A stretch of DNA of 52,030 nucleotides, taken from NCBI GenBank assembly GCA_002167285.1, contig NHDG01000056.1:1-52030 (forward strand), read 5' to 3'. Both the position numbers and the translations under genes were made by a program. The notes under the pieces are model-generated. The model was not told where the DNA came from and searched no databases. It saw nothing but the letters and a program-made list of their open reading frames with translations. This DNA is from Planctomycetia bacterium TMED53 (GTDB lineage: Bacteria > Planctomycetota > UBA8108 > UBA1146). This document shows, in pieces, positions 32,740 to 42,930 of this stretch (within the stretch, counting starts at the first letter, position 1; every line of letters begins with the position of its first letter).

Positions 32740-34644
32740 ATGAACAATTCCGATGCAGCATTTGCTGCCATCTTCGCCCGGTTTCTGGGCGCGCTGTGCA
32801 TCATCTTCGCGGTGGTCACTTCGAGTCATGTGATTCAATTTTCCATCGCTCTTTCCCAAGATCCGCCGGCTCAGCAAGATCCCGTCGAAGATGACCTTCT
32901 TGGCGATGATTTACTCGAAGATGACCTTCTGGCAGGTGAAGAGGAACCGGTTGTGGCGGAGGAGCTGTCCTCGATCGAGGCCCATGAAAAGGTCTTTGCC
33001 AAAAGCAATTTCCCGTCGGCAGATGAGTGCGCTCTTTGCCACCCCAAGCAGTACAAGGAATGGTCTGTTTCTCAGCACGCCTACTCCCAGTTAAGCCCGT
33101 TGATGATGTCGATGCAGAATGCCATGAACGTGGGTACGAGCACGACCAACGGAGATTTTTGTCTCCGTTGCCATGCTCCTGTTGGTTCTGATATCGGCGA
33201 GCCCTTCAGTGCCTCCAACCTCGAACGCCATCCAGCCTCAAGGGAGGGGATCACATGCGTCACTTGTCACAGAATGAGTGCCGGTTACAGAAAAGTATCC
33301 GGGCGAATTGGCATCGATAAAGGTGACGTCTTCGACTCGGTGAAAGGCGCACTGGGGAACGAGGAGTTAGCGCGGGTTCTGGCAGATAAAAAACAGTTCA
33401 AAGTGAACACCGATCGCGATGGTGTGGGTCGTGCGATTCATACCGAGATCGAGCCCTTCTTTGAGCTCACCACTCCCGCGTTTTGTGGAACGTGCCATGA
33501 AGTTTTCGCACCCAACGGCCTGCGTGTGCACGAGTTGATGACTGAGTACCGTAATTCCCCTGCTGCGGCTGAGGGGATCACCTGCAATGATTGCCACATG
33601 GGTAAAGAGCAGGGAATTCCGGCAGGATATGAATGGGGCCCAGCTGCAGTGGTCGGTGGCCAAGAGACCGCTCCCCGCAAGCTGACCAACCACTTCTTTG
33701 CGGGCCCCGACTATTCGTTGATTCACGAGGGAATCTTTCCTGTGAATAAAAAGGCAAATGAGTTCAAGAGCCTATCTGAGTGGTTGAAGTTTGATGTCGA
33801 AGCGGGCTGGGGAACCGATGAGTTCGAAGACAACTGCCCTGAAGATCACCCATTCCCAGAATCTTGGGTATCCATCGACGATCGTTACGAGGCCCGTGAG
33901 ATCATCGATGAGCAGCAAGAGTTATTGGCATGGGCAAAAGAGCAGCGAATCGCTGTTCTTAAACGCGGGTTTGGTCTCTCTGATATTCGCGTCACTAACC
34001 ATGATGAAGACGGGCTCGATTTTGAAATTGACGTACGCAATTTGACTCGAGGTCATAACCTCCCGACGGGATTCGATGCCGAGCGAGTTTTCGTCGTGCA
34101 GATCGACGTTAAAAATGCTGCTGGCGAAGTCGTTTTTCAATCTGGAGATAGGGACCCGAATGGCGATTTGAGAGACACCTTTTCTCTCTATGTTCGCAAC
34201 GGTGAAGTGCCTCTCGATGAGCAGCTGTTCAATTTGCAATCCAAGTTTATGTCGCGCAACATTCGCGGTGGTGATCAAGAGCAGGTGTTGACCATCAACA
34301 CTTCTGTTTCAGCGCTTCCCTTTATCCGTCCTGCGTCACGGCCCAATAATATTTACGGCCACCCCAAGGGGATGCGAAAGCATCGCCGTGGGATCGAACC
34401 TTTGGGGCATCGAACCGCTGAGTATCACGTCAGTCCGGATCTTCTCAAGGGAGAGGGGCCCTTCACCATCGACGCTCGATTCGTTTCGCAATCGGTTCCT
34501 GTCAATCTGATTCATCAGACGATGCATGTCGGCTTTGACTACAACATGTCTCCGCGAGCGCTCGCAGAGAAGTTGGTCGATGGAGCTGTGGTAGTCGCGG
34601 AGAAAACAGCAGTGACCAGTGCAGAAGGGGAGGAGGGACGATGA
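32740..34644 (+). CDS. Pentahaem c-type cytochrome
   Basis: Five CxxCH motifs (CALCH, CLRCH, CVTCH, CGTCH, CNDCH) after a signal-like N-terminus and an acidic DDLL-rich stretch. Confidence 0.88.
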   Translation: MNNSDAAFAAIFARFLGALCIIFAVVTSSHVIQFSIALSQDPPAQQDPVEDDLLGDDLLEDDLLAGEEEPVVAEELSSIEAHEKVFAKSNFPSADECALCHPKQYKEWSVSQHAYSQLSPLMMSMQNAMNVGTSTTNGDFCLRCHAPVGSDIGEPFSASNLERHPASREGITCVTCHRMSAGYRKVSGRIGIDKGDVFDSVKGALGNEELARVLADKKQFKVNTDRDGVGRAIHTEIEPFFELTTPAFCGTCHEVFAPNGLRVHELMTEYRNSPAAAEGITCNDCHMGKEQGIPAGYEWGPAAVVGGQETAPRKLTNHFFAGPDYSLIHEGIFPVNKKANEFKSLSEWLKFDVEAGWGTDEFEDNCPEDHPFPESWVSIDDRYEAREIIDEQQELLAWAKEQRIAVLKRGFGLSDIRVTNHDEDGLDFEIDVRNLTRGHNLPTGFDAERVFVVQIDVKNAAGEVVFQSGDRDPNGDLRDTFSLYVRNGEVPLDEQLFNLQSKFMSRNIRGGDQEQVLTINTSVSALPFIRPASRPNNIYGHPKGMRKHRRGIEPLGHRTAEYHVSPDLLKGEGPFTIDARFVSQSVPVNLIHQTMHVGFDYNMSPRALAEKLVDGAVVVAEKTAVTSAEGEEGR

Positions 34645-40858: not shown

Positions 40859-42930
40859 GTAACGAATCGAGAGGCCGCTTCGATTCAAAGACCACTCATT
40901 ACCTGAGGCCTGACAGGCCTTATGTATGTGGAAGGAGTGGATCTCCATGCTCCAATGGCCCCACCGTTGTGGGAACTTGTCCTCACCGCGATGATCGTTG
41001 TGAGCCAAGAATTAATGAGGGGCATCTACGTAAAAAAGTTCATCGATGGGTAATTTTGCTATTTTTGGGTGGAGTCATGGTGACCCTTGCTTCTGCCGAT
41101 GAGGATGGCAAACCATTTCAACAAAAACTGATTGATCCTGGCCCCTTATCACATGTTCACGCAAGATTTGATTGCAGGGATTGCCATTCTGAGGAGATAA
41201 ACTCATGGTCAGCGCTGCTCGCGAGCGCATGGCATGGTGGCAAAGATACAGTAGGCAGCGAAGGCTGCCTTGAGTGTCACCAACAGGGTGAGCATGCGAA
41301 GTATGCCCATGGCGTTTCGCCAAAAGAGTTGCGCTCAAGAAGTAGTTTCAACGATGTTGAGCCCTTTGAGGACCAAACTGAATGCACGGTGTGCCATTCT
41401 GAACATGGACATGGCAACTCGCAGCAAATTTTATCCGATTCACGCTGCCAAGCTTGCCATCAACAAGATTACGACAGTTTTAGATCGGGTCATCCGGAGT
41501 TTTCAGACAGCTATGGAAACAGGGATCGGGTCATTTCGTTCAGTCACTCAGATCATTTTTTGAGGCATTTCAAGAATGATTCAAGCTTTTCACCCAATAC
41601 ATGTTCTGCATGTCATGAGCTAGAACCCGCCACTGGATCTATGAGTGTAAAACCTTTCGAGGTTTCATGTGGGCAATGCCATTCAGAAGACATTTACAAG
41701 AGTGAGCCATTTCAATTTTTTGCTTTCCCGTCAATTTTTGGAATGGAGTTATTGGAAGAAGAAGGAATGGGGGCAGGTTCATGGCCCGAATACATCGACG
41801 CAGTTGAGCTAACCCCATGGACTCGTCGCTGGTATCAAAATAGTGAAATGCCTGAAGAGTTTGCGGGCCTCATGGAGAGTGCTGAGATCGAAGCTGAACC
41901 TGGTAACCCTGTCAGGGCGAAGCAACTGCAAAACTTTGCCATGGAAGTCAAAAGAGCATTCATTGTTGACATGGCGAATGATCTCGCCGATTGGATTCGA
42001 AAACTACTCCCGCAAAAATCACGAGATTTAAACAAGCAGGAACTCGCGAAGCTGTCAGGGCAGTTTCCTATCGCCTTGTTGTTGCAGATGCAGCAGCAAT
42101 GGTTTCCCGAGTTGGATGTGGAGTTGAATCGCTTCACTAAAGGGCTGGCAATCAATGTCATGCCGGAAGATGAGCTGGCAGGGTCGAGTGTTGAAGAAGA
42201 CCAAATTGAGAAGAAAGATAATTCTTCCGAGGATTCGCCAGTTGAAGAAGGCGACTTGCTAGCGGAAGAAGATGATTTGTTGACGGAAGAAGATGACCTG
42301 CTTGCTGAGGAAGACGACTTACTACTCAATGATGAAGATGTGATTGATGAAGAACTTGTAATTAGTTCAGAGGCCGAAGTTAAAGACGAGTACTCTTTGC
42401 AAGAGATTGCGACAGGGAAAAAGTGGGCCTCTCTGGGGGGGTGGTATGAGCAGGATGGCGTAATTTGGTTCAAAACCGTTCAGCATGCGGATCCCTTTTT
42501 GATGGCTTGGATCCACGCGGAGCTGACGCATGGCGGTGAAGATGATGAATCGTCAAAGATATTATCAATACTCCTCGATGAGAAAGGTCCGGGGCGCTGC
42601 ACCAAGTGCCACACTGGCGTTTCCAAGGATTCAACGCAGGCGCATTGGGGAATAAAGGATGATCCTTTGGAAGAGAAATACACTCACTTCAGTCATGCTG
42701 CTCATGTGTTCAATGATGATGACTTTTTATGCACCAGCTGTCATACGCCAAGAGAGACCCCTTCTCCAAAGGGTCATGATTGGTTTCCGGTACGGATGGA
42801 CGCCTGTACTAACTGCCATGGTGTCGAGGTGGCGGATGGCTGCACACTTTGTCATCAATATCATGCGTCTCCGCAAATTCGCCAGTTGAAGGCTTCGAAG
42901 TTAAATATTTTTGGAAGCAAAGAAGAGTGA
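40855..42930 (+). CDS. Decahaem c-type cytochrome with N-terminal Cys motif and TM anchor
   Basis: GTG start at 40855 overlapping the upstream stop; CGRSGSPCSNGPTVVGTCPHRDDRC before TM (WVILLFLGGVMVTLASA); ten CxxCH motifs (CRDCH, CLECH, CTVCH, CQACH, CSACH, CGQCH, CTKCH, CTSCH, CTNCH, CTLCH). Confidence 0.88.
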   Translation: MSNESRGRFDSKTTHYLRPDRPYVCGRSGSPCSNGPTVVGTCPHRDDRCEPRINEGHLRKKVHRWVILLFLGGVMVTLASADEDGKPFQQKLIDPGPLSHVHARFDCRDCHSEEINSWSALLASAWHGGKDTVGSEGCLECHQQGEHAKYAHGVSPKELRSRSSFNDVEPFEDQTECTVCHSEHGHGNSQQILSDSRCQACHQQDYDSFRSGHPEFSDSYGNRDRVISFSHSDHFLRHFKNDSSFSPNTCSACHELEPATGSMSVKPFEVSCGQCHSEDIYKSEPFQFFAFPSIFGMELLEEEGMGAGSWPEYIDAVELTPWTRRWYQNSEMPEEFAGLMESAEIEAEPGNPVRAKQLQNFAMEVKRAFIVDMANDLADWIRKLLPQKSRDLNKQELAKLSGQFPIALLLQMQQQWFPELDVELNRFTKGLAINVMPEDELAGSSVEEDQIEKKDNSSEDSPVEEGDLLAEEDDLLTEEDDLLAEEDDLLLNDEDVIDEELVISSEAEVKDEYSLQEIATGKKWASLGGWYEQDGVIWFKTVQHADPFLMAWIHAELTHGGEDDESSKILSILLDEKGPGRCTKCHTGVSKDSTQAHWGIKDDPLEEKYTHFSHAAHVFNDDDFLCTSCHTPRETPSPKGHDWFPVRMDACTNCHGVEVADGCTLCHQYHASPQIRQLKASKLNIFGSKEE

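What the first reader, a model, noticed from the sequence alone, without database searches (positions are those of the whole stretch)
32740..42930. Seven-gene multihaem redox cluster without an evident terminal reductase or oxidase
Seven consecutive plus-strand genes, several with overlapping start/stop codons, encode 5-, 4- and 10-haem cytochromes (19 CxxCH motifs read directly). With them are a predicted outer-membrane barrel, a membrane-tethered FAD/[2Fe-2S] reductase, a 16-Fe ferredoxin-like protein and a membrane protein with intramembrane His residues. No molybdopterin, copper or nitrite-reductase-type catalytic subunit is visible. The parts could move electrons from NAD(P)H or quinol across the inner membrane and periplasm to a barrel-associated cytochrome. 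That would be an extracellular or trans-outer-membrane electron conduit distinct in gene content from Mtr/Pcc systems, but the functional assignment is inference.
Basis: partly seen in the sequence, partly recalled or inferred. Interest (0 to 1): 0.85.

Follow-up and report, generated by a model that had tools for sequence, protein, structure and literature searches.

The report
Two-part NAD(P)H-to-outer-membrane electron exporter
Seven neighbouring genes in an uncultured planctomycete encode what looks like a chain that carries electrons from the cell's NAD(P)H out to a cytochrome paired with an outer-membrane pore; the same set recurs in many bacterial phyla, yet I found no paper describing it, and the compound it reduces is unknown.

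Summary
In detail: seven co-directional genes (32740-42930) with 5, 4 and 10 haem c motifs, a barrel, a FAD/[2Fe-2S] reductase, a 16-Fe protein and a four-His membrane protein. The set is conserved in Planctomycetota, Verrucomicrobiota, Alpha- and Gammaproteobacteria, Nitrospinota, Nitrospirota and Lentisphaerales, with fixed haem counts. Distance correlations split it into two partly exchangeable halves: an inner-membrane half (g3, g5, g6, g7) and an outer-membrane pair (g1, g2); g4 lies between. Conserved histidines can ligate every haem on both sides, so nothing looks catalytic. The barrel is predicted confidently but resembles narrow ~18-strand OprD/MOMP/AlgE channels, not MtrB, so an MtrAB-type wire through it is doubtful. 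g1 belongs to the pentahaem-plus-Ig-domain family of Geobacter ExtKL and Thermochromatium c552. Best reading: a cyclic-nucleotide-responsive NAD(P)H-to-periplasm exporter feeding a porin-cytochrome pair that reduces a small soluble acceptor. Closest known: Geobacter extHIJKLMNOPQS; the inner-membrane half differs. Acceptor, direction and gating are inference.

The parts
32740..34644 (+). g1: pentahaem cytochrome c with C-terminal Ig-like domain (PHC family), N-terminal hydrophobic export signal, acidic DDLL-rich linker
   Evidence: 5 CxxCH; Cytochrome_C554; 24/24 homologues hit ExtKL model NF040886, the window's own far below its cut-off; 5ze8 E 7.5e-18 incl. weak Ig segment; hhalign to Nitratiruptor 5-haem cytochrome E 6.5e-28
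34641..36023 (+). g2: outer-membrane beta-barrel, about 18 strands, beside g1
   Evidence: AlphaFold2 pLDDT 90.3; Foldseek to MOMP/OprD/Occ/AlgE; lumen face more conserved and charged than outer face; no Pfam family
36033..37283 (+). g3: membrane-tethered NAD(P)H reductase, FAD + NAD-binding + C-terminal [2Fe-2S]
   Evidence: PF00970/PF00175/PF00111; N-terminal TM segment; Cys 369/374/377/404 invariant in 46 homologues
37327..38337 (+). g4: periplasmic tetrahaem cytochrome, c554-like
   Evidence: 4 CxxCH, C554 E 1.2e-12, PDB 1bvb E 5.2e-16; four invariant distal His for four haems
38349..40034 (+). g5: cytoplasmic cyclic-nucleotide-binding domains fused to a 4 x [4Fe-4S] ferredoxin
   Evidence: cNMP_binding E 1.6e-26 and Fer4_11; phosphate-binding-cassette residues G173/E174/R183 and 16 cluster Cys conserved in 56 homologues
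40031..40858 (+). g6: inner-membrane di-haem b-type cytochrome (predicted)
   Evidence: invariant H74/H88/H248/H262 in 31 homologues; 10/31 hit DUF4405, 3 cyt b561, 2 Ferric_reduct, all weakly; model pLDDT 90.7
40855..42930 (+). g7: inner-membrane-anchored decahaem cytochrome with a cytoplasmic four-Cys N-terminal motif
   Evidence: 10 CxxCH and ten conserved distal His; TM 62-80; GTGA overlap with g6 stop

Best explanation
A two-part electron exporter. In the inner membrane, g3 (FAD/[2Fe-2S]) takes electrons from NAD(P)H, g5 (a 16-Fe ferredoxin whose cyclic-nucleotide domains would make it responsive to cAMP or cGMP) relays them to the di-haem b protein g6, which moves them across the membrane to the anchored decahaem g7. 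The tetrahaem g4 shuttles them through the periplasm to g1, a pentahaem cytochrome held at the outer-membrane channel g2, where a small soluble acceptor (for example an Fe(III) chelate or a metal or chalcogen oxyanion) that reaches the pore is reduced. Shown: gene content, cofactor motifs, co-conservation, two co-evolving blocks, barrel class (as a confident model). Inferred: direction, order of carriers, gating, acceptor.
For: Synteny in more than 40 loci; g6-g2 co-occurrence in 250 planctomycete genomes 20/5/9/216, Fisher p 2.6e-18; distance correlations 0.92 within g1-g2 and 0.66-0.80 within g3/g5/g6/g7, 0.00-0.29 between; g3 has NAD- and FAD-binding domains; bis-His ligation possible for all haems; narrow channel-type barrel with conserved charged lumen; ExtKL kinship, and ExtI loss impairs selenite/tellurite reduction in Geobacter; pentahaem relative in an iron-uptake operon that also has an OprD-family porin; carriers tested have haem-copper oxidase and cytochrome c maturation genes.
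Against: No biochemistry for any member. The block separation weakens when divergent branches are removed (g1-g7 rises to 0.58). g6 has no significant structural match in the PDB. Lumen conservation in g2 would equally fit an inserted cytochrome. ExtI itself could not be compared by sequence. Direction of flow is not shown.
Confidence: 0.5

Rival explanations
1. MtrAB-like trans-outer-membrane wire: g1 sits inside g2 and passes electrons to extracellular solids, humics or partner cells.
For: g1 and g2 are adjacent wherever both were seen and co-evolve; g2 lumen is conserved and charged; Geobacter extHIJKL, with a related pentahaem cytochrome and a porin, supports Fe(III)/Mn(IV) reduction.
Against: g2 is ~18-stranded and OprD-like; no surface lipoprotein cytochrome seen in the set; carriers include cultured Gimesia and have haem-copper oxidases, so respiration of solids is not their only option.
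Confidence: 0.22
2. Assimilatory or protective metal reductase: the module reduces Fe(III) (or another metal) in the periplasm for uptake or detoxification.
For: Nitratiruptor pentahaem relative lies with FTR1, imelysin, ferritin, a 'transcriptional repressor' gene and an OprD-family porin; ExtH/ExtKL reported to be regulated by Fur (PMC5877670); UniRef names g6 of Gimesia 'Ferric reductase like transmembrane component'.
Against: No gene family recurs beside the full loci outside the window's own family in a way that points to iron uptake; 19 haems are costly for assimilation (inference).
Confidence: 0.2
3. Electron uptake: electrons from an extracellular or periplasmic donor run inward to reduce NAD(P)+.
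For: The same parts could work in either direction (inference from cofactors).
Against: Reverse flow to NAD(P)+ needs energy input and no coupling subunit is present among the seven genes; no donor oxidase visible (inference).
Confidence: 0.08

Closest known systems
Geobacter sulfurreducens extHIJKLMNOPQS cluster
   Same: Porin-like outer-membrane protein beside a pentahaem cytochrome, plus 10-haem and 4-haem cytochromes and an inner-membrane b-type cytochrome (PMC5877670); g1 is related to ExtKL
   Different: Inner-membrane half there is Rieske + cytochrome b with a 12-haem cytochrome; here it is FAD/[2Fe-2S] + cNMP-16Fe ferredoxin + five-helix di-haem b; no in-frame TGA (selenocysteine), no rhodanese
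Pentahaem cytochrome (PHC) family: Thermochromatium c552 (5ze8), ExtKL, cable-bacteria PHCs
   Same: Five-haem domain plus Ig-like domain
   Different: Cable-bacteria PHCs have no porin gene nearby; sequence identity is low
MtrAB / Pcc porin-cytochrome conduits
   Same: Barrel gene beside a multihaem cytochrome gene
   Different: Barrel ~18 strands and OprD-like rather than 26-28 (strand number of MtrB from general knowledge); pentahaem PHC rather than MtrA/DmsE decahaem
Verrucomicrobial porin-multihaem clusters of Trout Bog / Opitutus (PMC5615132)
   Same: Novel porin-multihaem sets in a related phylum; Opitutus-type loci here carry the g3-g5-g6-g7 half
   Different: Octahaem cytochrome and porins of at least 20 strands reported there; Opitutus-type loci here lack g1-g2. 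Whether the two sets share a locus was not resolved

Membership tests
PHC (pentahaem cytochrome) family | Five CxxCH haem sites followed by an Ig-like domain | tested here: met
   5 CxxCH in the complete g1 homologues; PDB 5ze8 haem segment and a weak Ig segment aligned; hhalign 99.8% over both domains to a 5-haem relative
ExtKL (NF040886) | Score above curated cut-off of 250 bits; selenocysteine (in-frame TGA) | tested here: not met
   28.8 bits for g1; 24/24 homologues hit at E<=0.001; ORF has no TGA inside
Geobacter ext cluster | Rieske ExtO and bc-type cytochrome b ExtP as inner-membrane half | tested here: not met
   No Rieske or bc-type cytochrome b domain in the seven genes
Geobacter ext cluster | Barrel homologous to ExtI | not tested
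MtrAB / Pcc conduit | 26-28-strand barrel able to sheath a cytochrome | tested here: not met
   About 18-19 strands in the model; best folds OprD/MOMP/AlgE
MtrAB / Pcc conduit | Decahaem MtrA/DmsE-family cytochrome beside the barrel | tested here: not met
   g1 has 5 haems and 29.6 bits to TIGR03508 (cut-off 192.2)
Four-His di-haem b membrane cytochromes (b561 / ferric reductase-like) | Two pairs of membrane His, one haem near each face | tested here: met
   H74/H88 and H248/H262 invariant, spacing 14
Four-His di-haem b membrane cytochromes (b561 / ferric reductase-like) | Fold match to a solved member | tested here: inconclusive
   Good model but no Foldseek hit at E<=0.001; weak Pfam hits only
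CAP-ED cyclic-nucleotide-binding domain | Phosphate-binding cassette G-E ... R | tested here: met
   G173, E174, R180, R183 100% in 56 g5 homologues
CAP-ED cyclic-nucleotide-binding domain | Binds cAMP or cGMP | not testable with these tools
   needs a binding assay

The most novel reading that the evidence does not exclude
A widespread, undescribed envelope electron exporter in which a cyclic nucleotide binds the electron carrier itself (g5) and so gates the current from NAD(P)H towards the cell surface, with interchangeable outer-membrane ends.
Probability: 0.3. Interest if true: 0.85.

Novelty: new variant of a known kind. Interest (0 to 1): 0.6.

Why it matters
If the reading holds, electron export across the envelope is built into many Planctomycetota, Verrucomicrobiota and proteobacteria that are not thought of as electroactive (all nine carriers tested have an oxygen-type terminal oxidase gene), through a module driven by NAD(P)H rather than quinol and possibly switched by a second messenger. 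Cultured carriers (Gimesia aquarii, Hwanghaeella grinnelliae, and by its g6 probably Gimesia chilikensis) make it directly testable.

Tried and rejected
Literature searches for the module by its parts found no description in the open-licence library; subscription papers were not searchable. The Methylobacter bioanode cluster is MtrAB-type and different. Recurrent extra genes beside the full loci: none consistent across phyla, so no hidden terminal reductase in the neighbourhood. Rfam search of 30000-44500: no RNA element. Promoter and terminator scans are at chance level. g6 against the PDB by sequence and fold: nothing significant. The Nitratiruptor porin is not detectably related to g2 by sequence. 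A control search for ExtKL through the genome search did not reach Geobacter.

Full report
What is there. Seven plus-strand ORFs fill 32740-42930. They are called g1-g7 here. CxxCH counts are 5 in g1, 4 in g4 and 10 in g7; shuffled versions of the same proteins give 0.009, 0.004 and 0.038 on average, and 7,735 aa of other ORFs of the window have none. g1/g2, g5/g6 and g6/g7 overlap by four bases (ATGA, ATGA, GTGA). The long ORF for g7 starts at 40759, but conservation begins after a GTG at 40855 that overlaps the g6 stop, giving 691 aa with a membrane segment at 62-80. The window lies in a 2.98 Mb MAG, 83% complete; close homologues are annotated as Planctomycetes/Planctomycetota.

Parts. g3 is FAD_binding_6, NAD_binding_1 and a C-terminal Fer2 domain behind one N-terminal membrane segment. 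g5 is more than a ferredoxin: it matches cNMP_binding (E 1.6e-26) and Fer4_11, and in 56 homologues the phosphate-binding cassette residues G173, E174, R180 and R183 are invariant, with all 16 cluster cysteines at 98-100%. g6 has no Pfam family of its own; in 31 homologues H74, H88, H248 and H262 are invariant, two pairs 14 residues apart, the usual sign of two b haems stacked across a membrane (general knowledge). Members hit DUF4405 (10 of 31), cytochrome b561 (3) and Ferric_reduct (2) weakly. g4 is c554-like (1bvb E 5.2e-16). g7 has an N-terminus, cytoplasmic by the positive-inside rule, with a four-Cys motif (one unit here, two in most relatives), one membrane segment and ten haems.

Wire, not enzyme. 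Outside the CxxCH motifs g4 has exactly four invariant His for four haems, g7 ten conserved His for ten haems, and g1 four invariant plus two nearly invariant for five. All 19 c haems can therefore be bis-His; none is obviously open for catalysis. This is inference from conservation, not structure.

The outer-membrane pair. g1 is a pentahaem cytochrome with a C-terminal Ig-like domain. All 24 aligned members hit the ExtKL model NF040886, the window's own far below its cut-off; 5ze8, the Thermochromatium c552, aligns well in the haem domain and weakly in the Ig segment; a Nitratiruptor plasmid protein with five haems aligns over both domains (hhalign E 6.5e-28). This is the PHC architecture described for cable bacteria and Geobacter (PMC11976967). 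g2 gave a confident barrel (pLDDT 90.3, pTM 0.83). Its best PDB matches are MOMP, OprD/Occ and AlgE channels (TM about 0.55 on g2, up to 0.70 on the target). I count 18-19 strands, so about 18. A barrel of that size is about 33 A wide at the backbone against about 48 A for 26 strands (my geometry), which leaves no room for a whole multihaem cytochrome, although a partly inserted haem is not excluded. The inward face is more conserved than the outward face (0.72 versus 0.54) and has 31 charged residues of 112 against 11 of 108 (faces assigned by hydropathy): a specific pore or a docking surface.

Conservation. Around g5, 45 genuine loci from named GTDB genomes all carry g6 next door. All seven genes occur in loci from Pirellulaceae and other Planctomycetota, Verrucomicrobia, Nitrospinota, Nitrospirales, Lentisphaerales, Alphaproteobacteria (including cultured Hwanghaeella grinnelliae) and Gammaproteobacteria, with haem counts of 5, 4 and 10 nearly always. 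Across 250 planctomycete genomes strong g6 and g2 hits coincide (20 both, 5 g6 only, 9 g2 only, 216 neither; p 2.6e-18). The locus sample started from g5, so it is biased to g5 carriers; the 250-genome test does not have that bias, but its genomes are related to each other, so the p-value is not a strict probability.

Two halves. Pairwise distances correlate within g1-g2 (r 0.92) and within g3, g5, g6, g7 (0.66-0.80) but hardly between them (0.00-0.29), with g4 in between (0.36-0.58). Without the divergent g1/g2 branch and the Opitutus branch the inner half stays (0.57-0.82), g1-g2 is 0.70, and cross values rise to 0.14-0.58 (first version). Gene content agrees: Opitutus, Omnitrophota and Myxococcota loci have the inner half without g1-g2 nearby, and g1-g2 occur with other cytochrome sets of 11, 15 or 17 haems. 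So the system looks modular, with exchangeable outer ends.

Mechanism. NAD(P)H to g3, to g5, to g6, across to g7, through g4, to g1 at g2. The order rests on cofactors and topology and is inferred. What g1 reduces is unknown. Leads: Geobacter ExtI, the porin of a cluster with a related pentahaem cytochrome, is needed for normal selenite/tellurite reduction (PMC5877670); extHIJKL contributes to Fe(III)/Mn(IV) reduction (PMC6148476); the Nitratiruptor relative is in an iron-uptake operon that also has an OprD-family porin. All nine carriers tested have a haem-copper oxidase and a cytochrome c assembly gene, so a role beside oxygen respiration is likely: disposal of excess reductant, iron reduction or detoxification.

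Verdict on the claim. It is a new variant of porin-cytochrome systems, nearest to the Geobacter ext cluster, with an inner-membrane half for which I found no described counterpart.

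Noticed in passing
40855-41040 (g7 N-terminus) and its homologues: Cytoplasmic four-Cys motif (C-G-x(n)-C-x2-GP-x4-G-x-C-x6-C-x-P) before the membrane segment of the decahaem protein, usually as a tandem pair in other phyla; no Pfam match; could bind a metal or cluster.
   Followed up: partly
g1 32740-34644 and g7 40855-42930; also L025, L035, L040, L042, L043, L068, L069: Acidic 'DDLL'-type repeats occur in one or both of the g1 and g7 linkers of loci from several phyla.
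   Followed up: no
L071 1023-5212, L072 3207-7483, L073 13870-18272: A sister genus carries two tandem g1 copies in front of g2.
   Followed up: no
L032, L034, L045, L049, L052: Opitutus-type loci combine the inner-membrane half with a divergently transcribed 3- to 4-haem gene and a ~1,300-aa 10-haem protein.
   Followed up: partly
P0032, L051 8942-11656, L077 2781-5357: Longer g5 variants of 838-904 aa; P0032 carries a HlyIII-type membrane domain (PF03006).
   Followed up: no
G000:C22:3623-4894 and same-genus genomes: Molybdopterin oxidoreductase of ~933 aa with one in-frame TGA, possibly a selenocysteine formate dehydrogenase.
   Followed up: no
L088 4556-11288 (NZ_AP023062.1): Nitratiruptor plasmid iron operon with an OprD-family porin, ferritin, imelysin, 5-haem cytochrome and FTR1.
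   Followed up: partly
G000:C121:17077-17154 (L079): Another ORF of 775 aa in the same genome weakly hits the ExtKL model.
   Followed up: no
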